DNA from: Leptolyngbya sp. SIO1E4 | GTDB lineage: Bacteria; Cyanobacteriota; Cyanobacteriia; Phormidesmidales; Phormidesmidaceae | Direction: 5' to 3' | Length of the DNA: 64,000 nucleotides | NCBI GenBank assembly: GCA_010672825.2 | Contig: JAAHFU020000005.1 | Span: forward strand, 434,001 to 498,000 | Shown: positions 44,897-63,560 of the stretch, in pieces | Numbering within the stretch: position 1 is the first letter of the stretch | How the letters are laid out: each line of letters opens with the position of its first letter | Notes under the pieces: model-generated | What the model saw: the letters and a program-made list of their open reading frames with translations, nothing else | The model's database searches: none | Told to the model about the DNA's origin: nothing | Made by a program: the position numbers and the translations under genes

Positions 44897-44992
44897 GGAG
44901 TCGCTGTGCCGTGTTAACCCTTGAAGCCAACACCCACCCAACCCGTTCCCTTTCCCGTGCTAGCTTGAAGTTGATTGAGGCTACCCCTAAAA

Positions 44993-45307: not shown

Positions 45308-45654
45308 GTGACATTCAGTTTTACATGGATGTCCACATTCCACAAGCCATTACGGAGCAACTTCGTCGTCGAGGTATTGATGTTCTGACAGCAATCGAGG
45401 ACGGTTCAGGCGAATTGCCGGATGATCAGCTTTTGGAACGAGCAACCCTCCTGAAAAGAGTCCTGTTTACTCAAGACATCCGCTTCAAAGCCCTCGCTGA
45501 GAGTTGGCAACGTCAGGGTAAACCCTTTGGAGGGCTCATTTTTGGTCATCAACTAGGCGGCACCATTGGGCAGTTTGTCAAAGACCTAGAACTCATTGCT
45601 CAAGGCTCCACTCAAGACGAGTGGCTAAATGCCATTGAGCATCTGCCCTTCTGA
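45304..45654 (+). CDS. DUF5615 PIN-like toxin-type protein
   Basis: 116 residues using TTG 45304, which overlaps the DUF433 stop (TTGA) and has AGAGGAC just upstream; this start keeps the first beta-strand IQFYMDVHIP, with the PIN-type first acidic residue. Later ones: LPDDQLLERA and VLFTQDIRFKALAESW (TxDxxF pattern). PIN-like nucleases of this group are the toxin-like partners of DUF433 proteins. An ATG at 45325 would remove the first strand. Confidence 0.8.
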   Translation: MSDIQFYMDVHIPQAITEQLRRRGIDVLTAIEDGSGELPDDQLLERATLLKRVLFTQDIRFKALAESWQRQGKPFGGLIFGHQLGGTIGQFVKDLELIAQGSTQDEWLNAIEHLPF

Positions 45655-45698
45655 AACGTTACGCTTCTTACCCCCCACTCTCGCACGCTCCCTCTCTC

Positions 45699-47723: not shown

Positions 47724-48056
47724 TCATTGATGATGGTCAGTTTCTCGCTCGCGAATCAGATCGGCGATTTTTTGATGAATCGCCTGGGCATCAAGCAGTC
47801 CTTTATCAATCAACAGCTTTTCGCAGGCATCGACCCAACGCTCGTAATAGGTGCGAGTATCGTTAGCATCTGATTCTGCTAGGGCAATTTCTTGAGTGAA
47901 CTGGTCAACCCATTCGGCCCAGCTATAGTGGCGATCGCTCGCCAGTTGATTCACGATGGCAAAGGCTGTCGCCTCCCAAGGCGCTTGAAAAACGGGCTCT
48001 GGTGAAGCGTCGTTGAGGCCATCCGTCAGAGGCTCTTGAGAAAATTGCAGAGACAT
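47724..48056 (-). CDS. nitrile hydratase accessory protein (P14K/P15K-like)
   Basis: 110 residues. FQAPWEATAFAIVNQLASDR, YSWAEWVDQFTQEI, YYERWVDACEKLLIDKGLL is the standard pattern of NHase/SCNase maturation proteins, which are related to the beta-subunit N-terminus and deliver cobalt-loaded, oxidised alpha subunit by subunit swapping. Last gene of the minus-strand set alpha, beta-N, beta-C, accessory; 13 bp after the beta-C stop. Likely co-transcribed. Confidence 0.88.
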   Translation of the reverse strand: MSLQFSQEPLTDGLNDASPEPVFQAPWEATAFAIVNQLASDRHYSWAEWVDQFTQEIALAESDANDTRTYYERWVDACEKLLIDKGLLDAQAIHQKIADLIRERETDHHQ

Positions 48057-48069
48057 GAATCAGCACCGC

Positions 48070-48438
48070 TTAAGGAACTTCAAGATGATCGTCAAACAGG
48101 TCAAGATAGAGGGCGTCTTGGTTCGGGGCATCAGGCCCCCAGAGTTCTTGAGCAGCAAAGCGGATGCTGTAGACGTGCTGAGGCGATGTACTCAATCGCT
48201 GACCCAACGTGTCCGGAAAAACATAAACGCCATGCGCTCTCACTACTGTGCCGACTTTACCGCGCACGTAGCGGGGCAGGCGCGTGTAGGTTTTGGGATG
48301 CATCACCTTAGCGCGCACTAAATCCCCCACCTGAAATTGCGGGGGCAAGTCGCTCGCTACCTGACAGTTTGCCCCCTGCTGCAAAAGAGCTTGGGCGGCA
48401 GCGGCAGACATACATTCATTAGGCGGTTCAATGGTCAT
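48070..48438 (-). CDS. nitrile hydratase/thiocyanate hydrolase beta subunit, C-terminal half as separate protein
   Basis: 122 residues. SH3-like beta barrel of NHase beta: FQVGDLVRAKVMHPKTYTRL, PRYVRGKVGTVVRAHGVYVF, then AQELWG and a C-terminal acidic strand LYLDLFDDHLEV. The two Arg residues of TRLPRYVRGK correspond to residues that hydrogen-bond the oxidised cysteines in the active site. It begins 4 bp inside the beta-N gene (ATGA). In ordinary NHase both halves are one chain; separate halves are the layout of thiocyanate hydrolase. Confidence 0.9.
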   Translation of the reverse strand: MTIEPPNECMSAAAAQALLQQGANCQVASDLPPQFQVGDLVRAKVMHPKTYTRLPRYVRGKVGTVVRAHGVYVFPDTLGQRLSTSPQHVYSIRFAAQELWGPDAPNQDALYLDLFDDHLEVP

Positions 48439-48791
48439 CGCAGGCTTTCAGGAGAATCATCCACAGCGGCTTGGGGTCGCTCAGTCTCAGTGCTCTGGCG
48501 CAAGTGCGCAATCCGGGCTTCAATTTCGTCAGGCGAGAGTAAATCATGCTCTGCCAGTAAAAGTTCTAAGGCGTAGAGCCACCGTTCGTAATAGCTAGAG
48601 CTGAGGTATTGTCCTGGCGGGATGCGTTCTGAGGCATGGCGGGTTTCGTCCACTGGGAAGTAATTGATAAAGGTCGCAAAGCTCATCGCAAACACTTTTG
48701 CTTCCCAGTCGCTATGAAAAACCGGCTCATTTTCCTCAATGGGAATCGGGCCTAAACCCTGCATGCCGCCCATGTCGTGGGGACCATTCAT
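48435..48791 (-). CDS. nitrile hydratase/thiocyanate hydrolase beta subunit, N-terminal half as separate protein
   Basis: 118 residues starting MNGPHDMGGMQG, the canonical NHase beta start (MNGxHDxGG). Then PVFHSDWEAKVFAMSFATF and RHASERIPPGQYLSSSYYER, the helical segment that wraps the alpha subunit. It ends with a variable charged tail; the SH3 half is encoded by the next gene. 12 bp after the alpha stop. Split beta is typical of thiocyanate hydrolase (scn) and a minority of NHases. Confidence 0.9.
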   Translation of the reverse strand: MNGPHDMGGMQGLGPIPIEENEPVFHSDWEAKVFAMSFATFINYFPVDETRHASERIPPGQYLSSSYYERWLYALELLLAEHDLLSPDEIEARIAHLRQSTETERPQAAVDDSPESLR

Positions 48792-48803
48792 CGCGATCGC
48801 CTC

Positions 48804-49424
48804 CTAAGCCGCTACTGGCGTGGGGGCACTGGGAGGCAGCACCTTCGCCGTCCCGATCATGGCGTTGCGGGTCACCAAGGCGGCCAACTCTGATTCCGAC
48901 AGGGTCTCGGTGCCACTCGGTCGCTCTGGTAGCACCAGATATCGTAAATCGGCATTGCTGTCCCACACGTGAACTTCCACTGTGTCTGGCAGCTCTAACC
49001 CAAACTCCGCGAGCACGCTGCGGGGTTCAATCACCGCCCGCGAGCGATATGCAAACGACTTATACCAGGTGGGGGGCAACCCCAAAATGGCCCAGGGATA
49101 GCAGGAGCAGAGGGTACACACCACCAGGTTATGCACTTCCGGCGTGTTTTCGACCACCACCATGTGCTCGCTCGAAAACCCCGTCAAACCCAACTCAGCG
49201 ATCGCGGCGGTGCCGTCGGCTAATAGTCGCTGCTTAAAGTCCGCATCAACCCAAGCTTTGGCCACAATTTGAGCCCCAATGTGCGGCCCCACCGTGTGTT
49301 CATAGTGCTCAATGATGACATCCAGAGCAGCGGGGTCAACAATGCCTTTCTCAATCAGCAGAGACTCGATCGCCTTTACCCGCAAGGCAATCTCGGCTTC
49401 AGAACCGTGGTGAGAAGCTGTCAT
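48804..49424 (-). CDS. cobalt-type nitrile hydratase/thiocyanate hydrolase alpha subunit (set 1)
   Basis: 206 residues from ATG 49424; a longer frame from 49538 has poor coding character. Claw motif [10 protein letters not shown] with C103, C106 and C108, of which the last two are normally oxidised and bind the metal; Thr after the first Cys marks the cobalt type. Other family blocks: [56 protein letters not shown] and [19 protein letters not shown]. Cytosolic enzyme that hydrates nitriles to amides or hydrolyses thiocyanate. First gene of a minus-strand operon. The promoter region is shared with the cysteine hydrolase on the other strand. Confidence 0.93.
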
Positions 49425-49607
49425 AGGGGTATCCACACAAGCTTTTTTGACTTCACAAATACGCTGCCGAACTCTCGATACCCAGTGGAATCGTTGGTGA
49501 ATTAAAAGGATTGTACCAAGATTAGCCTCAAACCCCAACTCTGCGATCGTAATGTTGCCGTACTTAAACCAATAAAGATACAGTTCAATTAATTAATCGA
49601 GGCGTTT

Positions 49608-50288
49608 ATGGTTTCCGCTAAAACGTACAGTCATCCCTTCCATTTGCCCTTGAAAAAAACGGCTTTACTGGTCATCGATATGCAAAATGATTTTTGCCAC
49701 CCCGATGGCTTCAACGGCAGCGAATTAGCCCTTGACTTGACTGGAGTCCGAGCCATCATTCCCTCGATTCAAACCCTACTTACCTGGGCTCGGCAAACTA
49801 AAATTCAAGTCATTTTTACCCGCGAAAGTCACGCACCAGACTTATCAGATCTCACTTCTAGTAAGCAAACCCGGTATGCCAATGCGGGCTCACCCATTGG
49901 TCAACGCGGCAAAATGGGGCGGTTTTTAGTCCGAGGTGAACCCGGGGCGGCCCTGATTGATGAGCTACAGCCTCAACCCCAAGAATGGCAGTTGGACAAG
50001 CCTGCTCACTCCTGCTTTGTGGCGACTGACCTTGATCAAAGATTACGCATCGCCCACATTACCCATTTGCTGATCGCTGGGGTCACAACGGAATGCTGTG
50101 TGCTAGCGACCTATCGTCATGCCAGCGATCTTGGCTATTACTGCCTTCTTCTAGAAGATTGCTGCGCAGCCTTCAATCCCCAAGATCATGCCGCCACCGT
50201 CCACATTTTGCAGTCAGAGGGCGGCGTTTTGGGATGGGTAAGTGATTCTCCGCAGCTCTTTGAGTCGTTATCGGTTCTTCAGCCCTGA
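49608..50288 (+). CDS. cysteine hydrolase, isochorismatase family (possible amidase)
   Basis: 226 residues. Triad: D24 in ALLVIDMQNDF, K131 in QLDKPAHSCF, and C164 in GVTTECCVLAT. This family includes nicotinamidase, N-carbamoylsarcosine amidase, biuret/ureidoacrylate hydrolases and isochorismatase; an amidase role is the most common. Divergent from nitrile hydratase set 1 with a 180-bp gap, and followed by an ABC importer. It could hydrolyse the amide made by the hydratase and release ammonium, since no classical amidase-signature gene is nearby. Substrate unproven. Confidence 0.88.
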   Translation: MVSAKTYSHPFHLPLKKTALLVIDMQNDFCHPDGFNGSELALDLTGVRAIIPSIQTLLTWARQTKIQVIFTRESHAPDLSDLTSSKQTRYANAGSPIGQRGKMGRFLVRGEPGAALIDELQPQPQEWQLDKPAHSCFVATDLDQRLRIAHITHLLIAGVTTECCVLATYRHASDLGYYCLLLEDCCAAFNPQDHAATVHILQSEGGVLGWVSDSPQLFESLSVLQP

Positions 50289-50583
50289 AACCGTGAAGCT
50301 GCAAGGGGGCACAAGGCAACTCTGTGAAGTCATTGCGAATCGGCGTTGCCGCGATCGCGGCGCTTTCACCCGGCCCACTGCAATCCGGTCATCCGAAAAC
50401 ATGAATTCACTATTTCGCAAGATGCAAAGAGATTTATTGCTAGATCAGCAATAATCTATCCCTTCTTCTACTGAAACTGTGCTCTCAACTACAGCAGTTT
50501 CCCCTTTAGTCATCTACTGTCTAACCACGTCCCGCTTATTGTAGATGGCTCGCATTCGGTTGATTTCCTTGAGGTGAAGCGTC

Positions 50584-51648
50584 ATGCTCCAGACGTCCAA
50601 ATGGCTAAAACGGTTGTTGCCCCTGACTGCCAGTGTTTTTCTCGGAGTCGCCTGTGCCACACCCGAAGCCACTGAAGCACCGGCAGAGGCACCCGCAGCC
50701 GATGCCTCTGAGAGTAGTGACGCTTCCGAGGAGTTGATTCCGGTCAAGGCCGGGCATTTAGTCGCGTTGGATATGGCTCCATTATTCGTAGGGGTAGAAT
50801 CCGGCTGTTTTGTGGAGAATGGACTAGCCGTAGAAACCGTATTTTTTACGAATCCAGGGGATAACAATGCTGCCTTAGCAGGGGGGCAAATCGACTTTAG
50901 TACAAATCCCTTTACGCTTCCTTTCTTTGCTGCTAATAGCGGCGTGCCGATCAAGACGGTTGCTGCCGCAGGTGGGTGGGGAGTGATGCAGGTGATTATT
51001 AATAATGAATACGGGGTAGAATCGGTCGATGATTTAGTGACCTTTGTGTCAGATAATCCCGATACCAAACTCAAAATTGCGACCCTACGCGGCGATACTT
51101 TAGAGCTAATTTTGGTGGATGCTTTTGAGGCAGCAGGCGTTTCTCTCGACGCTTTTGAGATGGTCTATTTTGATGACCTGTTGGCCATGGTCGATGCCTT
51201 TCGAGTTGGGGAAGTCGATGTGTTGAGCCACATTAAGCCCTACACCACGCAATTTGTGGCGAGCGGTGAGGCGACGGTGCTGACCGACAATGCCGAAGTA
51301 TGGTCACCCACTACCCCTAATACCGTCGTCAGCGTCTTGGAGAATACCCTGGACGAGCGTCCTGAAGTGGTCGAGGCGTATATTGCTGGGTTGCAATGTG
51401 CCGCTGAAATTATTAATACTGACCCGGAGGCTGCGATCGCCCTGTTGACTGACGGTAACTATTACCGCGTTGAGGATGACGTGTTACTCACTGCATTTGA
51501 GACCCAGCCTTCCCCCATCACCTTTACCCCAGATTTAGAAGCGGTGCAAACCGTGGTCGATAAGATGGTAGAGCTGAAATACATCGAATCGGATGTCCCT
51601 GCCGCTGAGATTTTTAGCACCACCATCGTCCAAGACCTAGAGAAGTAA
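50584..51648 (+). CDS. nitrate/taurine/thiamine-precursor-type ABC substrate-binding lipoprotein
   Basis: 354 residues. Lipobox GVAC near residue 24-28, then an Ala/Glu-rich linker. NMT1/SsuA-like fold: VKAGHLVALDMAPLFVGVES, GCFVENGLAVETVFF, AALAGGQIDFSTNPF and DAFRVGEVDVLSHIKPYT. Proteins of this group bind small ions or pyrimidine precursors (sulfonate, nitrate, cyanate, HMP). ATG after GAGGTGAAG. Operon with a permease 1 bp after its stop and an ATPase. Located between the cysteine hydrolase and an Lrp gene, so probably serves the hydratase island. Confidence 0.9.
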   Translation: MLQTSKWLKRLLPLTASVFLGVACATPEATEAPAEAPAADASESSDASEELIPVKAGHLVALDMAPLFVGVESGCFVENGLAVETVFFTNPGDNNAALAGGQIDFSTNPFTLPFFAANSGVPIKTVAAAGGWGVMQVIINNEYGVESVDDLVTFVSDNPDTKLKIATLRGDTLELILVDAFEAAGVSLDAFEMVYFDDLLAMVDAFRVGEVDVLSHIKPYTTQFVASGEATVLTDNAEVWSPTTPNTVVSVLENTLDERPEVVEAYIAGLQCAAEIINTDPEAAIALLTDGNYYRVEDDVLLTAFETQPSPITFTPDLEAVQTVVDKMVELKYIESDVPAAEIFSTTIVQDLEK

Positions 51649-51649
51649 C

Positions 51650-52459
51650 ATGCCTCATTCTTCGCCGGGTGCCCCAGCTTGGCAGCCCTCCCTGCTAGCG
51701 ATCGCCTGTGGACTGTTGTCTTGCGGGGTTCTCGTCGCCATTTGGGAGGTGGCCGGCAGCAATCCGGCTAATCCCGTGACTCAGGTGTTGCCGCCGCCGT
51801 CACAGTTTTTGCCCGTTTTGTTTGAAAGTGACTTTCGAGTGGGTTTAGGGTCGCAATCGGCGTCCATTTATCAGTCGGTCACTGTGACGCTCATTCGCGT
51901 TTCCTTGGGCATGGCGATCGCCTTTGTGGGTTCCATTGCCTGTGGTCTGCTGATCAGCCTCTCCAAGTGGTCAGAGTTATTTATTCTGCCGATTCTGGGC
52001 TTGATGGCCCCGATCGCCCCCATCGCCTGGGTGCCCCTGGCGCTGGTTGTGTTTGGCGTTAGCAACCTGACAGCGGTTTTCATCGTGTTTATGGGGGTGT
52101 TTTTCACCCTGACCATTGCCACCGTAGCGGAAATCAAGCGGCTTCCCGACAATCTGTTAATGACTGCGCAAAATCTGGGCGGTGGCAGCTTTAATCGCTG
52201 GCGCTGGGTGATTATTCCAGCGGTTTTGCCGGGGGTGTTTACCCTGCTAAGACTCAATTTCATTGCAGCTTGGATGGCCGTTTTGGCGGCAGAAATGACT
52301 GGATTGCGTGATGGCCTGGGCACCGTGGTGATGACCGGGCGCAACCTGTTCAACAGCAATCTCATTTTGCTGGGGATTTGCATCATTGGCATCACCGGAT
52401 TTGCCGTCGACCGCCTGCTGCTGTTCATTCAGCGGAAGTTTTTCTGGTGGCAAGTGTAG
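51650..52459 (+). CDS. ABC importer permease (SsuC/TauC/NrtB type)
   Basis: 269 residues with about six membrane helices. The EAA loop is LLMTAQNLGGGSFNRWRWVI IPAVLPGV-like (NLGGGSFNRWRWVIIPAVLP) near residue 165-185. Starts 1 bp after the binding-protein stop. Forms the homodimeric channel with the ATPase that starts 2 bp after its own stop. An extended N-terminal hydrophobic segment is present. Confidence 0.9.
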   Translation: MPHSSPGAPAWQPSLLAIACGLLSCGVLVAIWEVAGSNPANPVTQVLPPPSQFLPVLFESDFRVGLGSQSASIYQSVTVTLIRVSLGMAIAFVGSIACGLLISLSKWSELFILPILGLMAPIAPIAWVPLALVVFGVSNLTAVFIVFMGVFFTLTIATVAEIKRLPDNLLMTAQNLGGGSFNRWRWVIIPAVLPGVFTLLRLNFIAAWMAVLAAEMTGLRDGLGTVVMTGRNLFNSNLILLGICIIGITGFAVDRLLLFIQRKFFWWQV

Positions 52460-52461
52460 GT

Positions 52462-53310
52462 ATGGAGCGTGATCATATTTCTCGGTCGCCCCTCTCAACT
52501 GGGCCTATACTTTCCTGCCAGCAGCTGACGAAAGGGTTTGCCAGCGGACGTCAAGCCACAACCGTTTTAGAGAACATCCATCTTGATGTAGCACCGGGGG
52601 ATTTTGTCACCATTTTGGGGCAATCGGGCGGTGGCAAATCGACCCTGCTGCAGCTTCTGGGCGGCTTCATTGCGCCTACTCAAGGGCAGGTGTTGTTTCA
52701 CGGCGTGCCGCTCAAGGGCATCACCCCTAAGATCGGCATGGTCTTTCAAGAAAACACGCTATATCCCTGGCTGACGGTGGAGCAAAACATTGGCTTTGGC
52801 TTCAAGGTCAGGGGCAAAAAGCGTCGCCAATATCAGCATCAGGTCAGCGATGTCCTGGAGCATGTAGGGCTGGCCCAATCTCGCACTCTGTACCCTCACC
52901 AGCTCTCTGGCGGGATGAAACAGCGGGTGTCGATCGCCCGTTCCATTGCTGTTCAACCCGATGTGTTGCTGTTAGATGAACCCTTTTCGGCGTTAGACAT
53001 TCAACTCCGGAGGCGGTTACAAGGCTTTTTATCCACGATTTGGCAAGACACCGCAACCACGATGGTGCTGGTCACCCACAACGTCGAAGAAGCGATCTTA
53101 CTCGGCCAAAAACTGCTGGTGATTGGCGACAAACCCGGTCGCATTATTGAAACAGTCGATATTGCAGCAGCTCAGTTTCGCGATCGCTACGACCCGCAAT
53201 TTTTAGCGCTGCAGCGCCATTTAGAAACCGTCATTGAAACCGATGCTCAGACCCAGACCTCACTCCACAGGCCCTTTGTGGAGCCCCCTCAAGTCCTTGA
53301 TCCAACCTGA
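52462..53310 (+). CDS. ABC importer ATPase (SsuB/TauB/NrtD type)
   Basis: 282 residues from ATG 52462, directly after the permease. Walker A GQSGGGKSTLLQLLGGF near 50, Q-loop MVFQENTLYPWLTVEQN, signature LSGGMKQRVSIARSI near 150, Walker B LLLDEPFSALD, H-loop VTHNVEEA. The C-terminal 40 residues (IIETVDIAAAQFRDRYDPQF) are typical for sulfonate/nitrate transporters. Completes the first taurine-type importer. Confidence 0.92.
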   Translation: MERDHISRSPLSTGPILSCQQLTKGFASGRQATTVLENIHLDVAPGDFVTILGQSGGGKSTLLQLLGGFIAPTQGQVLFHGVPLKGITPKIGMVFQENTLYPWLTVEQNIGFGFKVRGKKRRQYQHQVSDVLEHVGLAQSRTLYPHQLSGGMKQRVSIARSIAVQPDVLLLDEPFSALDIQLRRRLQGFLSTIWQDTATTMVLVTHNVEEAILLGQKLLVIGDKPGRIIETVDIAAAQFRDRYDPQFLALQRHLETVIETDAQTQTSLHRPFVEPPQVLDPT

Positions 53311-53364: not shown

Positions 53365-53859
53365 TCAAGGCTGTACTCGGGCTGGGTATTGCGCCTTATG
53401 AATTTTGAGAATGGTTCGGGAATTCAGCCGCTTCACGTCTGGATGACTTTTGAGGAAATTAATAAACGTCAGTAGATCTTGATTGTCTTTGTAAATGTAT
53501 TCCAGCATGAGATTTAACTCCCCCGTGACCGAGGCAATGTAGCTAATATTTTCCATCGCCATCAGCTGATTGAGGCTGGCTTCTAAAAAGGATGGCTGCA
53601 CTTCTAGTTCTAGATAGGCCACATTTTCATGTTTGACTTTACCCGTATTGATAAAGGCACTAATAGAAATAATCGCTTCATCAAGTAACCGTTTAACTCG
53701 ATAGCGAATCGTTGCCTCAGGCGAGTCGATAGAGCGGGCAATGTCGCTGTAGGCAATCCGACCATTTTTTTGTAAAAGCTCAATAATTTTTAGATCTAAT
53801 TGATCTATTTGATATCCTTCAATGGCCTGGATCTCTGGGTCAGGAGGAGAGATTTGCAT
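53365..53859 (-). CDS. Lrp/AsnC family transcriptional regulator
   Basis: 164 residues. N-terminal HTH IDQLDLKIIELLQKNGRIAY with SDIARSIDSPEATIRYRVKR near residue 18-60, then the RAM/AsnC ligand-binding fold (VAYLELEVQPSFLEASLNQL; MENISYIASVTGELNLMLEY). Lrp/AsnC proteins sense amino acids or nitrogen compounds as octamers. Located between the two importers and divergent from the second, so it is the best candidate regulator of the hydratase island. Convergent with the first importer. Confidence 0.92.
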   Translation of the reverse strand: MQISPPDPEIQAIEGYQIDQLDLKIIELLQKNGRIAYSDIARSIDSPEATIRYRVKRLLDEAIISISAFINTGKVKHENVAYLELEVQPSFLEASLNQLMAMENISYIASVTGELNLMLEYIYKDNQDLLTFINFLKSHPDVKRLNSRTILKIHKAQYPARVQP

Positions 53860-54289
53860 AGTTCTATCGTTAGGCGATCGCAGTCATAAATATCCATACT
53901 ACAAGCCCTGGTAGCATGACTCATTCATTGCCGGCATTTATGGATTCCGTATAATCTAGACCAGATTCAACGATATCAGCAAAAAAATGTAGCCATCTCT
54001 ACGGTTATGAGTAAAGACAAGCAGTATTCTTGTCCTGATAGAGAGGTTGGCTTGGTGTAGCAACCGCGATCGACCATGAGCTGAATGATGTCTATTTGTT
54101 TGGGGTAAGTGGACTTTCTGATGATGGACTGAGGTTGGTTATCGAAATCTTGCCGATCTCATTTGATCAGAGTGTGCAGCGGTGCAGCGGTTCGTCTGCG
54201 TTGAATAAACTCAGCAGGCTGATTTGTCAGCACTTTGCGTGGTTGCCTTAGCATCCGACTTTTTATTCTGGATAGCGTTTTCAACTAAT
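53860..54289. other. divergent control region between Lrp gene and second importer
   Basis: 430 bp without a gene. It should contain the promoters of the Lrp gene and of the importer-hydratase operon. I see no clear palindrome that can be named an Lrp site. Confidence 0.45.
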
Positions 54290-55090
54290 ATGAAGGTCAA
54301 TTATTTGGAGCATCAAAAAGGTGTAGATTCTCACCGAGTTGGCTTGGATATCTCTGTTTCAGGCTTGACTAAGTACCTGAACGGTAAGCCACTCTATGAG
54401 GATTTTTATCTTCATATTCCCAGCCAAAAGATTACCTGCATTTTTGGTCCCAACGGTTGTGGTAAGTCAACTTTACTGAACATGATTTCGGGCCTAATAC
54501 CAGTCGACTCAGGACAACTTTTCTTTGGTGGCAAGCCCCGCTCTGAAGTCAACCTCGGCTATGTTTTTCAGAATTACCGAGACGCTCTTTTTCCTTGGCT
54601 AAGAGCAATTCAAAACATTGAATATCCCCTTTTGAGTGCAGGCTTTTCTCGCCTCAAGCGACGCGCTCGTGTCGAAGAGTTGATTCATCAATTTAATGTG
54701 GGCTTTGATCTGTCCCGTTACCCCTATGAGCTATCTGGTGGTCAACAGCAGTTAGTCTCCATCATGCGTGCCCTGGCCACCCAACCCAATGTGTTATTCC
54801 TCGATGAACCATTCTCGGCATTAGATTACGAGGCGACGTTAGCTATTCGAGACAAATTGCAGGATGTGTTTGTCGAAACGGGGGTCACAATCGTCATGAT
54901 TTCTCACGACTTAGAAGAGGCTGTCTATCTAGCCGACCATATTTTATTGCTGACCAAGCGACCTACCCGGATTGCTGAAAGCGTTGTTTTTAATGCTAGC
55001 CGTCCTCGCACATTAGCAACCTTGTCAGACCCAGAGTTTGTGCGGATCAAAGCCCATAGTCTGGATGTCTTTCGGCGTGAGGCGAGTTAA
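54290..55090 (+). CDS. ABC importer ATPase (taurine/nitrate type), second system
   Basis: 266 residues from ATG 54290; the longer reading from 54224 adds 22 hydrophobic residues that do not fit an ATPase. Walker A GPNGCGKSTLLNMISGL near 62, Q-loop VFQNYRDALFPWLRAIQN, signature LSGGQQQLVSIMRAL, Walker B VLFLDEPFSALDYE, H-loop VMISHDLEEAVYLA. First gene of the operon ATPase, permease, binding protein, beta, alpha. Different in sequence from the ATPase at 52462. Confidence 0.92.
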   Translation: MKVNYLEHQKGVDSHRVGLDISVSGLTKYLNGKPLYEDFYLHIPSQKITCIFGPNGCGKSTLLNMISGLIPVDSGQLFFGGKPRSEVNLGYVFQNYRDALFPWLRAIQNIEYPLLSAGFSRLKRRARVEELIHQFNVGFDLSRYPYELSGGQQQLVSIMRALATQPNVLFLDEPFSALDYEATLAIRDKLQDVFVETGVTIVMISHDLEEAVYLADHILLLTKRPTRIAESVVFNASRPRTLATLSDPEFVRIKAHSLDVFRREAS

Positions 55091-55092
55091 AG

Positions 55093-55875
55093 ATGGCAAA
55101 GGCGAAACTGCGTTTTTCAAGTGGTGTGTCCTCTTTTTTGGTGGCCAATACAGGCACCATCCTCATTCTTATGGTTTGGTGGGTGGTTACGGCACTGCAG
55201 TTAATCAATCCAGTGTTATTGCCGAGCCCTGTTGAGACTTTTGTCGCATTGTGGGAAGGCATGGCCGGTGGTGGGCTCTTGCTGGATTTTTGGCTAACCC
55301 TATATCGCAGTCTTTATGCCTTTGTGATTGCCGCTTTTTTGGGAATTCCGATTGGTATTTTGCTAGGAGCTAATGAAAATTTATATCGTTCTTTTGAGTT
55401 CCTGATTGATTTTTTTCGCTCCACGCCAGCAACAGCAATGTTCCCTTTATTTTTAGTCGTTTTTGGGATTGGCGACTTCTCAAAGGTTGCAGTCGCCGCC
55501 TTTGCTGGCGGATTAGTTATTTTCTTTAATGTTGCCTACGGCGTTATGAATACTCGGAAAACCCGAATCATGGCGGCCCGGATCATGGGCGCACCTCGAT
55601 GGCGAATTTTCTTTGACGTCATCTTTTTTGAAACGCTGCCTCAAACATTTATCGGTTTGAGGACAGCGATCTCCTTGACCTTAGTAGTCATCATTGTGGC
55701 CGAAATGTTTATTGGCTCCACAAATGGTATGGGACAACGAATTATTGATGCCCAGCAGGTGTTTGATATGCCTGATATGTACGCTTCGATTATTGCGACT
55801 GGCATTATGGGCTACGGCCTCAATCAGCTTTTCTTACTAACTGAAAATAAATTTATCCATTGGAAAGGACGTTGA
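55093..55875 (+). CDS. ABC importer permease (taurine/nitrate type), second system
   Basis: 260 residues, about six helices: ILILMVWWVVTALQLINPVL with PSPVETFVALWEG, the usual start of this permease family. EAA loop AARIMGAPRWRIFFDVIFFE near 160. Start 2 bp after the ATPase stop. Its 3' end precedes the binding-protein start by 5 bp, so it is tightly coupled. Confidence 0.92.
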   Translation: MAKAKLRFSSGVSSFLVANTGTILILMVWWVVTALQLINPVLLPSPVETFVALWEGMAGGGLLLDFWLTLYRSLYAFVIAAFLGIPIGILLGANENLYRSFEFLIDFFRSTPATAMFPLFLVVFGIGDFSKVAVAAFAGGLVIFFNVAYGVMNTRKTRIMAARIMGAPRWRIFFDVIFFETLPQTFIGLRTAISLTLVVIIVAEMFIGSTNGMGQRIIDAQQVFDMPDMYASIIATGIMGYGLNQLFLLTENKFIHWKGR

Positions 55876-55880
55876 AAATT

Positions 55881-56963
55881 ATGAGTGCTCAAAACTTTAG
55901 TCGTCGCCAGTTTGTTAAGTATGGTGCTCTGACCGTAGGGACAACCGCGATCGCGGCCTGTACTGGTAGTTCAGAAGTTGAAGAAACGACTGCCCCCAGT
56001 GAAGATACATCGACTACAGAGACTGGCGGTGGAAGTCCTGAAGTCATTGTCAAAAAAGAAAAGGTCGTGGCCTCTTGGCTGCCCATCATGCAAACAACAG
56101 CTTATTACGTGGCGCTCGAAGAAGGTCTGTTTGAGCAGGCTGATATTGAAATTGAGTCCGTCAAATTTGAAAACCCTAACCAGATTATTGATTCCCTGGT
56201 TTCGGGTAGGGCTGATTTTGGCCCTCCAGGTGCCGCTGCTGGAATTACCGTATTAGCTGAGGCTAAGACGCCAGGCACATTCAAAGTGTTTGGGCTGCAA
56301 GGCGGTGGCATCGAAAGCGACTTTATTAATGACGGACTGATTGTTAAACCGGATTCGACCATTGCCACATTTGAAGACTTACAGGGGAAAAAAGTAGGCA
56401 CGATTCCCGGTATTCAGTGGAAGACGATTCTGTCTTACATCTTGAAGAAAAATGGATTAGAGCCGGGTAATAACGTCACGATTGAGCAAATGGCAGTGGG
56501 CTTACATTTGCCCTCAGTTGTCTCAGGAGCAGTCGATGCCACCTTGTCGTTGGAACCCACCGGGTCAATCGCCGAAGCGACGCAACAGGCTAAACGGGCT
56601 CTGGTAAATCCCGTTTCCATGTTTATTTCCGATCCCTTCTATTCAGGGGCAGCGGTGCTGACGTCTAAGTTTTTGACCGATCGCCCGGAGACGGCCAGAA
56701 AAATCGTACAGGTAATTGATGAAGCCACCAAAATTGCCAACAGTGACTTCGATAAGGTACGTCCCTACATTTCTCAATACACTGCCCTTGAACCCGACCA
56801 AGCTTCCTATGTGGCTCAGCCACGACTCAGAGGTTTCGATGATTTAGATGACATCGATTTAGACTCTTACCAAAAATTTATTGATGTCTTCTATGAGGAA
56901 GAGGTTTTAGAGCAAGCCATGGCGGTTAAAGCATTAATGTTGGATAAAGCAGAGCTAGGTTAA
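55881..56963 (+). CDS. Tat-exported ABC substrate-binding lipoprotein (NMT1/THI5-like)
   Basis: 360 residues from ATG 55881. N-terminus has a twin-arginine motif SRRQFVK, hydrophobic segment and lipobox AIAAC, so it is probably a Tat-dependent lipoprotein, which suggests folding or cofactor loading before export. Body: WLPIMQTTAYYVALEEGLFE, SVKFENPNQIIDSLVSGRAD, GPPGAAAGITVLAEAKTPGT and a substrate pocket typical of NMT1/SsuA-like proteins. Its stop overlaps the start of the nitrile-hydratase beta gene (TAATG), the strongest link here between importer and enzyme. Confidence 0.92.
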   Translation: MSAQNFSRRQFVKYGALTVGTTAIAACTGSSEVEETTAPSEDTSTTETGGGSPEVIVKKEKVVASWLPIMQTTAYYVALEEGLFEQADIEIESVKFENPNQIIDSLVSGRADFGPPGAAAGITVLAEAKTPGTFKVFGLQGGGIESDFINDGLIVKPDSTIATFEDLQGKKVGTIPGIQWKTILSYILKKNGLEPGNNVTIEQMAVGLHLPSVVSGAVDATLSLEPTGSIAEATQQAKRALVNPVSMFISDPFYSGAAVLTSKFLTDRPETARKIVQVIDEATKIANSDFDKVRPYISQYTALEPDQASYVAQPRLRGFDDLDDIDLDSYQKFIDVFYEEEVLEQAMAVKALMLDKAELG

Positions 56964-57676
56964 TGTTTGAGGTTCCACCGAGCACCTATCATCAACCGAT
57001 ACCGCATGACCCTGATGACCAGTCCCCGATCATCAGGAAAGAGGGGCATATCAGTTTTTATGAAAAGCAGATTGTGGCGCTGCATAATCTGATGAGAGCA
57101 AAAAAGCAATTGCCTAGTTTTGACTCAGTGCGACGTGCTGCTGAAGAAGTAGACGGTCAGTTTGTTGCTCAAGCCTTTTCCGACGAGATCCCTGATTTTC
57201 TCAAGCATCGCCTACCTGACTACGGAGAGAGGAGAGTTCTAGCGGTTGAAAGAGTCTTACAAGATCTCAATTACGTTTCTAGGGAGGAATTAAAACAGCA
57301 GTTTACAGCGCTTGACGATACTGACGCTTGCCAATTTTCTGCCAAAGTTGCCTATCAGCCTGAGACGAATGAAGCGACCTACGCAATCCCGCAGTATCAA
57401 GTTGGTGACTTAGTTCAAGTGATTCCCCATGACAAAGTTGGACACATTAGAACGCCTGTTTACTTGCGGCAGAAAAAAGGGATCATTCAAGGCCTACAGG
57501 GGCAGTATTTGAACCCAGAAGAGTTAGCGCATTTTAAGTCTCCAGTTTTTCGATTGCCACTTTACTTAGTTGAGTTTGAAATGCTGGAAGTCTGGGGCGA
57601 TCGCTGCCCTATCAAGAGTCTGAAAGACAAGCTGCGAGTCGAAATTTATGAGCCCTGGCTGTCACCACTGCCATAG
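56963..57676 (+). CDS. nitrile hydratase beta subunit, set 2 (atypical N-terminus)
   Basis: 237 residues. C-terminal SH3-like half is clear: YQVGDLVQVIPHDKVGHIRT, PVYLRQKKGIIQGLQGQYLN, VFRLPLYLVEFEMLEVWGD and LRVEIYEPWLSPLP. The second active-site Arg block reads YLRQKKG where others have RGK/RGR. The N-terminal half lacks MNGxHDxGG; instead two similar helical blocks appear, FYEKQIVALHNLM near 33 and YGERRVLAVERVLQDLNYVS near 90, each like the FYEKW-ALE helix of beta/accessory proteins. Translationally coupled to the Tat binding protein. Confidence 0.87.
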   Translation: MFEVPPSTYHQPIPHDPDDQSPIIRKEGHISFYEKQIVALHNLMRAKKQLPSFDSVRRAAEEVDGQFVAQAFSDEIPDFLKHRLPDYGERRVLAVERVLQDLNYVSREELKQQFTALDDTDACQFSAKVAYQPETNEATYAIPQYQVGDLVQVIPHDKVGHIRTPVYLRQKKGIIQGLQGQYLNPEELAHFKSPVFRLPLYLVEFEMLEVWGDRCPIKSLKDKLRVEIYEPWLSPLP

Positions 57677-57711: not shown

Positions 57712-58434
57712 ATGTCTAACCATGCCCCTCAAAATGATGAGCCCTTATCCAAGCCCACTGGTTCGACCGAGGCACATCACCATAGTCATGAACCTATTAC
57801 CGATGATGAAGCGTATTGGGCACAACGCACCAGAGTGATCCAAACGCTATTGGAAGCAAAAGGCTTTTTTACTGCGGATGAAGTCCGACGTGAAATTGAA
57901 CGCGAAGATTCTGTGACCCCCATGTTGGGAGCACGTTTAGTCGCCCGCGCTTGGGTTGATGCTGAGTTTAAGCAACGGCTCTTGGCCGATGGCAAAGCGG
58001 CCTGTCGAGAAATGGACATTGACACGGCTGAAATCAAACGGCTGGAGGCGGTTGAAAATACTCCGTCGGTTCATCACGTTGTTGTTTGTACCCTTTGTTC
58101 TTGCTATCCTCGAGCGATTTTGGGTTACCATCCACCTTCTTGGTATAAGAGTACGGCCTACCGCAATCAAGTTGTCGTTGATCCCCGGCGAGTTTTAGAA
58201 GAAGAGTTTGGCACGGTCATCCCCGATGCGGTTGAGGTTCGAGTGATGGATAGTAATGCCGATACTCGTTATCTCGTGATTCCTCTGAGACCTCAAGGAA
58301 CAGAAAACTGGAGCGAGGAGACCCTACGTCAACTTGTCACACGCGACAGTATGATCGGCGTTGCGGTGGCCGAGTCGCCTTTGTTCTTAAATAAGAGATC
58401 TGACAAAGCACAAGCATCGGAGATCATTTACTGA
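57712..58434 (+). CDS. cobalt-type nitrile hydratase alpha subunit (set 2)
   Basis: 240 residues from ATG 57712 (35 bp after the beta stop). Claw [10 protein letters not shown] with C126, C129 and C131; Thr indicates cobalt. VENTPSVHHVVVCTL, YHPPSWYKSTAYRNQVVVDP and VMDSNADTRYLVIPLRP are family blocks. The N-terminal about 30 residues are extra and include His-rich AHHHSHEP (H22-H26), absent from the other two alpha subunits; it may bind metal. C-terminal extension of about 20 polar residues. No accessory gene of the P14K type follows; DUF1097 and COG0523 genes come next. Confidence 0.93.
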   Translation: MSNHAPQNDEPLSKPTGSTEAHHHSHEPITDDEAYWAQRTRVIQTLLEAKGFFTADEVRREIEREDSVTPMLGARLVARAWVDAEFKQRLLADGKAACREMDIDTAEIKRLEAVENTPSVHHVVVCTLCSCYPRAILGYHPPSWYKSTAYRNQVVVDPRRVLEEEFGTVIPDAVEVRVMDSNADTRYLVIPLRPQGTENWSEETLRQLVTRDSMIGVAVAESPLFLNKRSDKAQASEIIY

Positions 58435-59394: not shown

Positions 59395-60378
59395 ATGGCA
59401 TTGATTCAAAAAGTTCCAGTAACCGTCCTTACAGGCTATTTAGGGGCGGGCAAAACCACGTTACTCAACCGCATCTTGACTGAAAACCACGGTCAACGTG
59501 TTGCTGTCATTGTCAATGAATTTGGTGAGGTCGGGATTGACCATCAGTTAGTCATTGATGCCGACGAAGAAATTTTTGAGATGAACAACGGCTGCATCTG
59601 CTGTACTGTTCGCGGCGATCTCATCCGCATTATTGGCAATCTCATGGCCCAGGGTGAGCCCTTTGACCATCTCGTGATTGAAACGACGGGCTTGGCCGAT
59701 CCGGCACCGGTGATTCAATCCTTTTTCACCGATGAGGTGATGGCGCGGCAAACGCAGCTTGATGCGGTGGTGACGGTGGTGGATGCCAAGCACGTCGAAG
59801 CCCATTGGGATAGCCATGAAGTGCAGGAGCAAGTCGCATTTGCCGATGTGCTCCTGCTTAATAAAACGGATTTGATTGCGCCCGAACAGTTGCAGGCTTT
59901 GGAAGCAAAAGTGCGGGGCATTAATGCGATCGCCACTATCCACACTACTCAAAACTGCGAGATTAGCCTGGACAAGCTGCTGGGCGTGCAGGCCTTTGAC
60001 CTGAAGAATGCCCTGAGCATTGATCCGCAATTTTTAGAAGACGATGCCCATGAGCATGATGACTCGGTGTATTCCGTCGCGATTACCGCCACCGGCACCG
60101 TGGATAGTGACAAACTTAATCGCTGGCTGTATCAGCTAGTGCAGGCCAAAGGGGCCGACATCTTTCGCATGAAAGGTATTTTAGATATCGATCATGCCGA
60201 CCGGCGCTTTGTGTTTCAGGGCGTGCACATGACCTTAGATGGTCGCCCTGGCAAACCCTGGCTGCCCAGTGAGCAGCGCCATAGTGAGCTGGTTTTTATT
60301 GGCCGCAATCTGGATGAAGATGAGCTGCGCCAAGGCTTCCAAGCCTGTCTGATGCCGGTGTATGCCGACGTGACCTGA
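59395..60378 (+). CDS. COG0523 (CobW/P47K) metallochaperone GTPase, nitrile-hydratase activator candidate
   Basis: 327 residues. G3E GTPase: Walker [10 protein letters not shown] (14-22), metal site CICC (67-70), [16 protein letters not shown] near 157, and C-terminal CobW_C domain ending [16 protein letters not shown] His/Asp-rich patch EDDAHEHDD lies near 215. COG0523 members insert metals; the Fe-type nitrile-hydratase activator P47K is one, and CobW handles cobalt. Position directly before set 3 beta suggests cobalt delivery to these hydratases. Zinc-responsive COG0523 roles remain possible. Confidence 0.92.
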
Positions 60379-60427
60379 CCGGTTTTGGTCGGGCCTTGAT
60401 TGACCTTGTTGAAAGTGACCTAATCTG

Positions 60428-61183
60428 ATGAAACTACAGCACTATCTGGGGGGTTTAGAAAACTTAGACCCCGTAAATTTTGAAACCCAGGTTTTTGTCG
60501 AACCGTGGGAACAGCGCATTTTTGGCATTCATACCGCGATGATGGCCCTCAGCAATCACCTGGGGGAGTCGCTACCCGATTACGACATCGAGCAGGTGCC
60601 CACAGAGTTCAAAAGCTTTTGGACCTGGGGCCATTTGCGCATGGGGGCCGAAGGCATGCACCCCTTTGAATATTTTCAGCTGCGTTATTACGAAAAGTGG
60701 TTAGGCGGTATCTCCGGTTTCTTTGTGGAGGAAGGCTACATCACCCAAGAAGAATTGGACCAGCGAACAGCGGAAATTTTGGCCGATGAGGCCAAAGCCC
60801 AAGCGCCGCTGCCCAGCGGCGGTGACGCCGCCATTGATAAGCAAGTGGTGAACTACTTGACCAAAGGGGATTCGCCGATGCGACCCCTGCCCGCCGCCCC
60901 GAGGTTTAGCGTGGGCGATCGCGTGCGGGTCAAAAATGTCGTCTCCGCAGACCACACGCGCCTGCCTGGCCACATCCGCGGCCGCGTGGCAGAAATCGTC
61001 AAAGTCTATGACGAGGCCTACACTTACTTTTTTGAGACCACTGATGGCTTAGGCACACCGATGCCGATTTACAGCATCGCCATCAAGGCCACCGACATCT
61101 GGGAGACTTCCCTGGCGGATGCCAATTCGATCTATTACAACGACGTTTTTGAAGTGTACCTGGAGTATTTGGAAGACGGCTAG
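60428..61183 (+). CDS. nitrile hydratase beta subunit (set 3, full length)
   Basis: 251 residues with both halves in one chain. N-terminal MKLQHYLGGLENLDPVNFET, EPWEQRIFGIHTAMMALSNH, FKSFWTWGHLRMGAEGMHPF and FQLRYYEKWLGGISGF; C-terminal SH3 half with FSVGDRVRVKNVVSADHTRL, PGHIRGRVAEIVKVYDEAYT, YSIAIKATDIWE and DVFEVYLEYLEDG. The Arg pair TRLPGHIRGR matches the active-site Arg residues. 50 bp after the COG0523 gene and 148 bp before alpha. Confidence 0.92.
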   Translation: MKLQHYLGGLENLDPVNFETQVFVEPWEQRIFGIHTAMMALSNHLGESLPDYDIEQVPTEFKSFWTWGHLRMGAEGMHPFEYFQLRYYEKWLGGISGFFVEEGYITQEELDQRTAEILADEAKAQAPLPSGGDAAIDKQVVNYLTKGDSPMRPLPAAPRFSVGDRVRVKNVVSADHTRLPGHIRGRVAEIVKVYDEAYTYFFETTDGLGTPMPIYSIAIKATDIWETSLADANSIYYNDVFEVYLEYLEDG

Positions 61184-61213
61184 GGCCAAGCCTGATCACC
61201 TGTGAACACGTTA

Positions 61214-61267
61214 GTCAGGGCCTGCCACCGCTTCGAGCCCGCGGTTGCCCAGGTGAAATCGCCTGAC
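61214..61267 (+). other. possible hairpin between set 3 beta and alpha
   Basis: GTCAGG (61214-61219) can pair with CCTGAC (61262-61267), with an inner ACCGC/GCGGT stem. The arms are short, so an attenuator or RNA-processing element is only a possibility. Confidence 0.3.
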
Positions 61268-61331
61268 CATTGCCAAAGTCATTCTTTTGCCTAACGAATT
61301 CCTTTGAACCTTACACCGAGAGGAGCGTGTA

Positions 61332-61955
61332 ATGCCCAGTAACTATCCAGGATTTGGCTATCCTGCCGATCGAGAAACCGTCAGTGCTGCCAAGGTCAAA
61401 GCCCTAGAATCGCTGCTGATTGAGAAGGGCGTGATTACCAGCAATACGGTCGATACCGTGCTCAGCCATTTTGAGACCAAGATGGGGCCGTTTAACGGGG
61501 CCAAGCTGGTGGCGCGGGCGTGGGTAGACCCCGAATTCAAAGAGTTGCTAGTAGCCGACTGCAATGCCGCCTGCCAGCAAATGGATTTTCCTGAAGGCAT
61601 GTCCGGGGCTGAAGGGGAGCACATGCGCGTGGCCGAAAACACGCCAGAAGTCCATAACGTTATTGTCTGTACCCTGTGTTCCTGTTATCCCTGGCCCACC
61701 CTGGGGCTGCCCCCCTACTGGTACAAAGACCCGACGTTTCGGGCGCGAGTCACGCGGGAACCGCGCGTCGTTTTGTCAGAGTTTGGGGTAGAGCTGGACG
61801 ATTCGGTCGAGGTGCGCCTGTGGGATACCAGCGGTCAGATTCGCTGGTGGGTGCTGCCCATGCGGCCTGCGGGCACTGAAGGCATGAGTGAGGAAGAGCT
61901 CGCGGCTCTGCTCACGCCGGAGGCCATGATGGGCGTGGCGACGGTCAAGGTTTAA
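61332..61955 (+). CDS. cobalt-type nitrile hydratase alpha subunit (set 3)
   Basis: 207 residues, ATG after GAGAGGAG. Claw [10 protein letters not shown] with C113, C116 and C118; cobalt-type Thr. [56 protein letters not shown] and VRLWDTSGQIRWWVLPMRPA follow. The last block has TSGQIRW where sets 1 and 2 have SNADLRY/SNADTRY, which lines the substrate pocket, so specificity may differ. Followed by the accessory gene. Confidence 0.94.
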   Translation: MPSNYPGFGYPADRETVSAAKVKALESLLIEKGVITSNTVDTVLSHFETKMGPFNGAKLVARAWVDPEFKELLVADCNAACQQMDFPEGMSGAEGEHMRVAENTPEVHNVIVCTLCSCYPWPTLGLPPYWYKDPTFRARVTREPRVVLSEFGVELDDSVEVRLWDTSGQIRWWVLPMRPAGTEGMSEEELAALLTPEAMMGVATVKV

Positions 61956-62017
61956 GCCCCTTGCCTGCTGCCCCCTGACAACGACCCTCCAATTCAGTTC
62001 TCCATTTGTCTCTGGTC

Positions 62018-62371
62018 ATGTTTACTAAATTTGAACACTTTGCCGCCACCAGTTTGATGGGCTCTCCTGAAGAGGCACCCCCCCGTCAGGATGGACATCT
62101 CCAGTTCGATCGCGAGTGGGAAAAGCTGGCCTTTGGGGTAGCGATCGCCCTTTCTAAGCAGGGCTATTTTGAATGGGAAGACTTTCGTCAAACGCTGATC
62201 GCTACCATCGCCGATTGGGAAGCAACCCACGAGCTAGATGACCCCGAGTGGGACTATTACCAGTGCTGGCTGGCCGCCCTTGAAAAATTGGTGGTCGATG
62301 CTGAGGTTGTGGATGCTAAGGAATGGCAAACCCTTGTGGTTCAACTGCTGGATTGCAAAGCCACGACCTGA
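62018..62371 (+). CDS. nitrile hydratase accessory protein (P14K-like, set 3)
   Basis: 117 residues from ATG 62018 (a TTG four codons upstream is less likely). FDREWEKLAFGVAIALSKQG, YFEWEDFRQTLIATIADWEA and YYQCWLAALEKLVVDAEVV give the pattern of NHase activator subunits that swap with beta to deliver metal. Completes the classic order beta, alpha, accessory of cobalt nitrile hydratases. Only weakly similar to the accessory protein of set 1. Confidence 0.88.
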   Translation: MFTKFEHFAATSLMGSPEEAPPRQDGHLQFDREWEKLAFGVAIALSKQGYFEWEDFRQTLIATIADWEATHELDDPEWDYYQCWLAALEKLVVDAEVVDAKEWQTLVVQLLDCKATT

Positions 62372-62507
62372 CCATCGCCCTGCTCTCAGCTAACAGCTCA
62401 CTTTTGTCGACAAATTCTGCATTCCGTTGTGCCAGGCGGGCTTGTGATTTTCTGCATCCTTGTTCAGTTTCTACTCTTCTATTCATCCCTCAATCGGGAG
62501 TCTTCTC

Positions 62508-62975
62508 ATGATTCGTCAGCTTCAATCCCTATATTCATGCCCATTTTCGCCAATGCTAAAAGCAGCAGCAGCACGATCTCTCCGACCGATTAAAACCAGC
62601 TTGATCGCGCTCTTCGGGGCTTTATGCTTGCTCTCGGTTGCCTTGCCAGCGATGGCCCACCACCCCTTTGGGGCATGACACCCGATAACTGGGTGCAGGG
62701 ATTTTTATCTGGTCTGGGGCACCCCGTCATTGGCCCTGACCACCTTGTTTTCACGATTATCATGGGCCTGTTAGCGACTCAACTTAAGCCCCATTGGCTC
62801 GTTCCTGCAGCGTTTCTGGCGGCGGCGTTGGTCGGTACCGACCTCCACTTGATGGCCCTCGATCTACCCGCTCCAGAGTTTGTGATTTCGCTGTCGGTTT
62901 TAGTGTTTGGCGTGCTGGCCGTTTTTGGGCAAAAACTCAACCTAGTTGCAGTGGTGGCCCTCGCGGTAATAAGGT
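62508..62975 (+). pseudogene. HupE/UreJ-type Ni/Co permease gene, frameshifted and cut by IS remnant
   Basis: Starts at ATG 62508 with CGGGAG upstream; signal-like segment LIALFGALCLLSVALPAMA, then HHPFG and a premature TGA. One missing G in the run at 62670-62673 would restore HHPFGGMTPDNWVQGF. The second frame continues with the family motif GLGHPVIGPDH and two helices, then breaks near 62970 where ISL3-type transposase sequence starts on the other strand. HupE proteins carry nickel or cobalt, which fits the cobalt hydratases. The missing base could be an assembly error, but the 3' loss could not. Confidence 0.85.
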
Positions 62976-63560
62976 CGTGGCTTGTAGGGATCGAGCAGGC
63001 TGCGCCCGAACGTGGCACGGCGCGTGGGGATCTCTGGAAAGTCTGGCAAGTGACCGTAGCGTTCAACGGTTTTGAGACTAACGCCTAGCTTCTGTGCAAT
63101 CGCGGCTTGCAGCCATCCCTGTTCCCGCAAGGATTTGATCGTCTGCTGTTGCTCTATCTTTCGGTGTTGGTTTTGTCGGATTCGTTGCTGTGCCATCTCC
63201 GTGGCAGTTGGCTGTGGGATCGCCACGACGATTTCTTCAGGAGTGCTGCAAGGGTGATCTGATGCTGTACTTGTTCAGCCGCTTTCAGCTCCCTGCGGTA
63301 GCTACCAAACACTTGCTCTAAAGTTTCACTCAAGTTCTTGACCAAGTGAAAGCAATCAGCAACTTACATCGCCTCTGGTGCGCCTTCACTCATGGCCCGT
63401 TTGTCGGTTTTGGAGCGGTCGCGTGAGAGCACTTCTACACCCGGGTGGGCCTGTGGCCACTCGATCAAGATTTCTGCCTGACGGTCTGCCAGTAAGGCAA
63501 CCAGTTGATGCGTTCCAATTGAATCGCTCGATGCAATTGCACCTTGCGGCAGCGCGTATT
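62975..63560 (-). mobile_element. degenerate ISL3-family transposase remnant
   Basis: Minus strand, three broken pieces of one transposase: LIEWPQAHPGVEVLSRDRSK then RAMSEGAPEAM ending at TAA (63364-63366); next, in the same frame, FHLVKNLSETLEQVFGSYRR; then after a frameshift near 63220 a helix-turn-helix part (AIAQKLGVSLKTVERYGHLP) and SLLDPYKP. The VEVLSRDRS and FHLVKNL blocks are ISL3 transposase signatures. No intact ends or target duplication found. Its left edge interrupts hupE. Confidence 0.82.

What the first reader, a model, noticed from the sequence alone, without database searches (positions are those of the whole stretch)
55881..57676. Importer binding protein translationally coupled to hydratase beta (TAATG)
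The stop of the Tat-type binding lipoprotein overlaps the start of the set 2 beta gene, after ATPase and permease genes spaced 2 to 5 bp. Such coupling of an importer to its enzyme suggests that the imported compound is the hydratase substrate, giving a handle on its identity.
Basis: partly seen in the sequence, partly recalled or inferred. Interest (0 to 1): 0.7.

Follow-up and report, generated by a model that had tools for sequence, protein, structure and literature searches.

The report
Nitrile importer coupled to hydratase
A filamentous cyanobacterium carries a conserved operon joining a small-molecule importer to a cobalt-type nitrile hydratase, and in close relatives the same importer sits next to a nitrilase-family enzyme instead, which suggests that the importer brings in a nitrile-like compound as nitrogen food.

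Summary
In detail: ATPase 54290-55090, permease 55093-55875 (gap 2), Tat-type lipoprotein 55881-56963 (gap 5) and hydratase beta from 56963, joined by TAATG at 56961-56965. The overlap itself is weak evidence: only the nearest relative keeps it. Better evidence is comparative. Among 390 cyanobacterial genomes, 10 carry a close orthologue of this binding protein. Five have this hydratase (beta2-alpha2) directly downstream; the other five, and Klebsiella wastewater plasmids, have a 553-aa nitrilase-superfamily protein there instead (one intact E-K-C domain, one degenerate). Trees indicate a single swap. Nearly all conserved binding-protein segments are identical across the swap. A nitrilase partner fits nitrile import and does not favour taurine or nitrate. 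The only full NtcA-type promoter in the window lies upstream (also in one relative); Klebsiella has a sigma54-type site. The importer therefore probably feeds nitrogen scavenging. Alpha2 carries an Arg that distinguishes thiocyanate hydrolase from nitrile hydratases, and one relative has this enzyme with no detectable activator. I favour import of a polar, probably charged nitrile. Its identity is not settled, and thiocyanate remains a rival.

The parts
53989..54030 (+). NtcA-type activator promoter: GTAGCCATCTCTAC - N22 - TATTCT, upstream of the importer operon
   Evidence: only full GTAN8TAC-N20-24-TAN3T in the 64-kb window on either strand (expected 0.35 per 64 kb; about 0.004 for a + strand site in the 430-bp intergenic stretch); same element with N22 upstream of the orthologous operon in G039. 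Consensus definition from PMC3898017. Pattern match only.
53365..53859 (-). Lrp/AsnC-family regulator, divergent from the operon
   Evidence: PF13404/PF01037; next to ABC_B in G003; elsewhere beside the ABC_A module
54290..55090 (+). ABC importer ATPase (ATP_B)
   Evidence: PF00005; 64-82% identical orthologues
55093..55875 (+). ABC importer permease (Perm_B)
   Evidence: PF00528
55881..56963 (+). Tat-type lipoprotein, NMT1/SsuA/ThiY-fold substrate-binding protein (SBP_B)
   Evidence: PF09084 E 2.4e-19; SsuA_fam 97 bits, below cut-off 163.5; fold neighbours THI5, SsuA, ThiY, TauA (low-confidence model)
56961..56965 (+). TAATG stop/start overlap
   Evidence: sequence; also in G036 only
56963..57676 (+). 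divergent nitrile hydratase-type beta subunit (beta2)
   Evidence: PF02211 3.6e-19, no PF21006 hit; fold search: Co-type NHase beta E 2e-11 (pLDDT 64)
57712..58434 (+). nitrile hydratase-type alpha subunit (alpha2), His-rich N-terminal tail
   Evidence: PF02979 6.5e-77; TIGR01323 236.8 bits vs cut-off 249.85; TIGR03887 204.7 vs 291.45
58087..58113 (+). cobalt-type metal claw CTLCSC followed by YPR; the R stands where NHases have W and thiocyanate hydrolase has R136

Best explanation
The operon is a nitrogen-scavenging module. The lipoprotein SBP_B captures a small polar, probably anionic or zwitterionic, nitrile-type compound; Perm_B/ATP_B import it; the cobalt-type hydratase beta2-alpha2 hydrates its C-N triple bond to an amide in the cytoplasm; other amidases then release ammonium. 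Expression is probably switched on by NtcA under nitrogen shortage. Shown from sequence: gene order, conservation, the exchange of the enzyme for a nitrilase-superfamily protein downstream of the same importer, an intact metal claw, and conserved binding-protein segments across the exchange. Inferred: that ligand and enzyme substrate are the same compound, that it is a nitrile, its charge, the NtcA control and the final ammonium release.
For: (1) SBP_B orthologues at E<=1e-60 occur in 10 of 390 cyanobacterial genomes. Five (G000, G036, G039, G031, G035) have beta2-alpha2 directly after SBP_B; five (G003, G055, G057, G101 twice, G168) have a 544-570-aa tandem CN-hydrolase there. That enzyme is found in 5 of 390 genomes, all of them SBP_B genomes. 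(2) Klebsiella pneumoniae wastewater plasmids NZ_CP056225/6 keep importer (SBP 58%) plus tandem CN-hydrolase 8 bp later. (3) G168 (91% complete) has importer plus CN-hydrolase and no NHase alpha at all; in G031 (95% complete) the importer-linked NHase is the only NHase, so each pair works as a unit. (4) CN-hydrolase domain 1 keeps E46-K119-C152; its closest named model and PDB chain are archaeal nitrilase. (5) 169 SBP_B columns are invariant in the 10 cyanobacterial sequences aligned, 130 of them also in Klebsiella; only 10 columns separate the two partner groups, one (227) in a conserved, probably pocket-lining segment. (6) Permease and ATPase trees place the hydratase-linked importers as one clade among nitrilase-linked ones: one swap. 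(7) NtcA-type promoter in G000 and G039; divergent sigma54-activator gene and exact TGGCN7TTGC in Klebsiella. (8) Arthrospira nthA/nthB rise under N limitation (PMC4509649).
Against: No binding or activity data. Nitrilase-superfamily enzymes include amidases and carbamoylases; domain 1 (ICFDG, not CWE) scores far below every equivalog cut-off, so it could be an amidase and the shared ligand could then differ. One swap event is one evolutionary datum. NtcA sites are absent from the 600 bp upstream in G031, G035 and the nitrilase-linked loci except for a bare GTAN8TAC in G168. Four genomes (G037, G004, G052, G156) carry beta2-alpha2 without this importer. The SBP_B model has mean pLDDT 58, so pocket chemistry was not modelled.
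Confidence: 0.6

Rival explanations
1. Thiocyanate module: the importer takes up thiocyanate and beta2-alpha2 is a two-subunit thiocyanate hydrolase that releases ammonia and carbonyl sulfide.
For: Alpha2 has Arg after CTLCSCYP, as thiocyanate hydrolase gamma (2dd4 R136) does and unlike alpha1/alpha3 and all wild-type NHases displayed (Trp); PDB holds chains with the reciprocal residues at this site (3vyg, 3vyh). It shares DSN-xx-TRY with SCNase. Thiocyanate is an anion and needs an importer.
Against: Alpha2 scores 204.7 vs cut-off 291.45 on the SCNase gamma model and higher (236.8) on NHase alpha; beta2 is one chain, SCNase has it in two. The ancestral partner is a nitrilase-fold enzyme, a fold not known to me to hydrolyse thiocyanate.
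Confidence: 0.15
2. Amide or ureide importer: SBP_B binds an amide/ureide handled by the CN-hydrolase as an amidase; the hydratase was inserted next to it and acts on a different, related compound.
For: CN-hydrolase domain 1 resembles amidases as well as nitrilases; a more distant ABC family (ATPase/permease 52-59%, SBP about 30% identical) lies between biuret-hydrolase-like genes in G050 (L050); the ABC_A module carries a biuret/triuret-hydrolase-like enzyme.
Against: Hydratase adjacency is kept in five genomes of four genera while beta2 falls to 49% identity and flanks change; no second partner gene is shared.
Confidence: 0.17
3. Chance neighbours: importer for an unrelated nutrient that happens to share an operon with the hydratase.
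For: Overlaps of 1-4 nt are common; TAATG occurs only in G000 and G036.
Against: Exclusive, exhaustive partition of SBP_B between two C-N-hydrolysing enzyme types in 10 of 390 genomes and one plasmid family.
Confidence: 0.08

Closest known systems
Cobalt-type nitrile hydratase (NthBA; beta-alpha gene order)
   Same: CTLCSC claw, beta then alpha order, two subunits, beta fold
   Different: Both subunits fall below the NHase equivalog cut-offs (alpha 236.8/249.85, beta 69.3/152.2); Trp to Arg next to the claw, one-residue insertion GYHPP; no activator gene in its operon and none detected in G031
Thiocyanate hydrolase (SCNase alpha-beta-gamma)
   Same: Arg at the R136 position, DSN..TRY motif, cobalt-type claw
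   Different: Two subunits, beta in one chain; SCNase gamma model score well below cut-off
NMT1/SsuA/ThiY/TauA-type ABC importers
   Same: SBP fold, permease and ATPase families, three-gene layout
   Different: Below the cut-offs of the SsuA and taurine models it matched; joined in an operon to a nitrile-type enzyme
Pyrococcus abyssi-type nitrilase / CN_hydrolase family (alternative partner)
   Same: Nearest model and PDB relative of the active domain; E-K-C triad
   Different: Two CN_hydrolase domains in one chain, the second without E, K and C
Nitrogen-regulated nth cluster of Arthrospira PCC 8005 (PMC4509649)
   Same: Cyanobacterial NHase raised under nitrogen limitation
   Different: The paper passages read describe no importer partner and no substrate identification

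Membership tests
Nitrile hydratase (Co-type) | alpha subunit with CTLCSC claw, PF02979 | tested here: met
Nitrile hydratase (Co-type) | scores above NHase alpha and beta equivalog cut-offs (TIGR01323, TIGR03888) | tested here: not met
   236.8 vs 249.85 and 69.3 vs 152.2; other alpha2 rows 224-236. Member of the superfamily, outside the curated equivalogs
Nitrile hydratase (Co-type) | activator protein in the operon | tested here: not met
   none beside beta2-alpha2; no PF21006 match anywhere in G031; G000 has two activators in its other NHase sets
Nitrile hydratase (Co-type) | hydrates nitriles | not testable with these tools
   needs assay
Thiocyanate hydrolase | gamma subunit above TIGR03887 cut-off | tested here: not met
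   204.7 vs 291.45
Thiocyanate hydrolase | beta-type chain split into two subunits | tested here: not met
   single 237-aa beta2, 8 orthologues
Thiocyanate hydrolase | Arg at R136 position | tested here: met
   CYPR in all NHase2 alphas, SCNase 2dd4_C shows CYPR
Taurine importer TauABC | SBP above taurine model cut-off | tested here: not met
   18.7 vs 304.25 bits
NtcA-activated (class II) promoter | GTAN8TAC, about 22 nt, TAN3T upstream of the operon | tested here: met
   53989-54030, and in G039; binding and start site not tested
Nitrilase (alternative partner) | Glu-Lys-Cys triad in a CN_hydrolase domain | tested here: met
   domain 1 E46, K119, C152 invariant in 7 sequences; domain 2 lacks all three
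Nitrilase (alternative partner) | above a nitrilase equivalog cut-off | tested here: not met
   213.9 vs 500 bits for nitrile_Arch; amidase activity not excluded

The most novel reading that the evidence does not exclude
A dedicated ABC importer for a charged or zwitterionic nitrile, exchangeable between a nitrilase and an activator-independent subclass of cobalt hydratase with a thiocyanate-hydrolase-like active-site Arg; this would give the physiological substrate of one hydratase lineage, something that is seldom known.
Probability: 0.35. Interest if true: 0.75.

Novelty: new variant of a known kind. Interest (0 to 1): 0.58.

Why it matters
To my knowledge the natural substrates of nitrile hydratases are mostly unknown, because the enzymes are studied on industrial nitriles. 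An importer that stays with the enzyme, and that elsewhere partners a nitrilase-family enzyme, offers a direct route: what the binding protein binds is what the enzyme should act on. It would also show how photosynthetic bacteria, and a wastewater Klebsiella plasmid, may draw nitrogen from nitrile-type compounds.

Tried and rejected
TAATG overlap as evidence on its own: not conserved beyond G036. Formamidase AmiF as pathway partner: it follows alpha2 in G052 and G156, but AmiF is present in 47 of 65 genomes of the order, so presence says little; adjacency in two genomes is only suggestive. Internal promoter: sites no more frequent than in shuffles. Structure-based ligand prediction: SBP_B model pLDDT 58, beta2 64, too low. 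Genome-contig scan with beta2 found one contig only; no beta2 on plasmids. The Klebsiella cassette is absent from 5,426 E. coli genomes. Papers: none that I found in the held library describes an ABC importer linked to a nitrile hydratase. The probe was hand-written, partly recalled, only to bring up the SCNase record; the residues cited are those printed from PDB.

Full report
Setting. The window lies in an 8.2-Mb cyanobacterial genome (G000:C5:434001-498000) whose nearest named match is a Halomicronema MAG. All three nitrile hydratase alpha genes of the genome lie in this window: 48804-49538 (-), 57712-58434 (+) and 61332-61955 (+). The finding concerns the second set, called NHase2 here.

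Observation. The reading is correct. ATP_B 54290-55090, Perm_B 55093-55875 and SBP_B 55881-56963 are followed by beta2 at 56963-57676 with a shared A in TAATG, then alpha2 at 57712-58434. SBP_B has a twin-arginine, lipobox-type leader. The overlap is only moderately informative: in the orthologous loci it is kept in G036 and replaced by gaps of 15, 70 and 29 bp in G039, G031 and G035. The order importer > beta2 > alpha2 is kept in all five, although the genes around it differ and beta2 identity falls to 49%.

Enzyme exchange. SBP_B orthologues of 61-97% identity are found in 10 of 390 cyanobacterial genomes. In five the downstream gene is beta2. In the other five it is a 544-570-aa protein with two CN_hydrolase domains. 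That protein is found only in these five genomes of the 390. It also follows the same importer in two Klebsiella pneumoniae wastewater plasmids (SBP 58%, permease 58%, ATPase 53%, CN-hydrolase 58%). Its first domain keeps the E46-K119-C152 triad in all seven sequences and its second domain has lost all three. The nearest curated model and PDB chain are archaeal nitrilases, but it is far below the equivalog cut-off, and amidase or carbamoylase models follow. G168 has importer and CN-hydrolase without any NHase alpha; G031 has importer and NHase2 as its only NHase. Trees of permease and ATPase, with outgroups, put the hydratase-linked importers in one clade inside the nitrilase-linked set (92/95 and 88/90 support), so a single replacement is the simplest history.

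Shared ligand. Across the exchange SBP_B keeps segments WLPIMQTTAYY, FENPNQIIDSL, GPPG.AAG, GLQGG, PG.QW.TI, SLEP.GSIA and DPFYSG; 130 of 169 invariant columns persist in Klebsiella at about 55% identity. Only ten columns separate the two partner groups, and just one (227) sits in these segments. That these segments line the pocket is inferred from the fold family; the model is too weak to show it. A single ligand handled either by a hydratase or by a nitrilase-fold enzyme is most simply a nitrile. Neutral small nitriles cross membranes unaided (general knowledge), so an ABC importer points to a polar or charged one.

Enzyme character. Alpha2 has the cobalt-type claw CTLCSC, followed by YPR; alpha1, alpha3, the Klebsiella NthA and wild-type NHases in PDB have YPW, and SCNase gamma (2dd4) has YPR. 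PDB chain 3vyg (SCNase) prints W and chain 3vyh (NHase) prints R at this position, so structural workers have swapped it. Alpha2 also shares the DSN..TRY motif with SCNase. It nevertheless scores higher on the NHase model than on the SCNase model and falls below both cut-offs, as do its orthologues. Beta2 is a single chain that folds like Co-type NHase beta. Its N-terminal half is too divergent for PF21006. G031 has no PF21006-type protein at all, so NHase2 may mature without the usual activator; the His-rich alpha2 tail may matter for metal loading, though Bacillus smithii NHase also has N-terminal histidines.

Control. The only full GTAN8TAC-N20-24-TAN3T element in the window starts at 53989, upstream of ATP_B (expected 0.35 per 64 kb; about 0.004 for a 430-bp stretch). 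G039 has one with the same 22-nt spacing; the remaining loci do not. In Klebsiella a sigma54-activator gene is divergent and an exact TGGCN7TTGC lies 133 bp before the ATPase. Both are nitrogen-type control signals and both are pattern matches only. NHase is raised under nitrogen limitation in Arthrospira (PMC4509649).

Verdict. The thing is best read as an importer-hydratase operon for nitrogen scavenging from a nitrile-type compound. The identity of the compound, and whether the Arg signals thiocyanate or another anion, need binding and activity assays.

Noticed in passing
47724-49538 (-): NHase set 1 has its beta subunit split into two genes (48435-48791 and 48070-48438, 4-nt overlap), a three-chain layout like thiocyanate hydrolase; the split is conserved in G035, G052, G055, G057 and G101, so it is not a sequencing error.
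   Followed up: partly
49608-53310 and L066:18022-22987: Second module: NMT1-type importer (ABC_A), NHase set 1 and a biuret/triuret-hydrolase-like enzyme; the same combination lies beside the first module on Klebsiella wastewater plasmids NZ_CP056225/6. A cyanoguanidine or cyanourea type substrate would fit but is untested.
   Followed up: partly
L045:7372-9033, L044, L046, L062-L064, L066: 553-aa tandem CN_hydrolase: first domain with intact triad, second a degenerate pseudo-domain.
   Followed up: yes
57712-57800: Conserved His/Asp-rich N-terminal tail in alpha2 orthologues (e.g. EAHHHSHEP, DHPHDHDH), in an operon without activator gene.
   Followed up: partly
L029:2939-3967, L061:7247-8266: Formamidase AmiF directly after alpha2 in two genomes of different families, where the importer is absent.
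   Followed up: partly
59395-63088: CobW-type GTPase, third NHase set with activator, and a HupE/UreJ metal transporter: likely cobalt supply and maturation genes.
   Followed up: no
41413-47292: Oligopeptide/nickel-type ABC importer operon just before NHase set 1 (SBP_bac_5).
   Followed up: no
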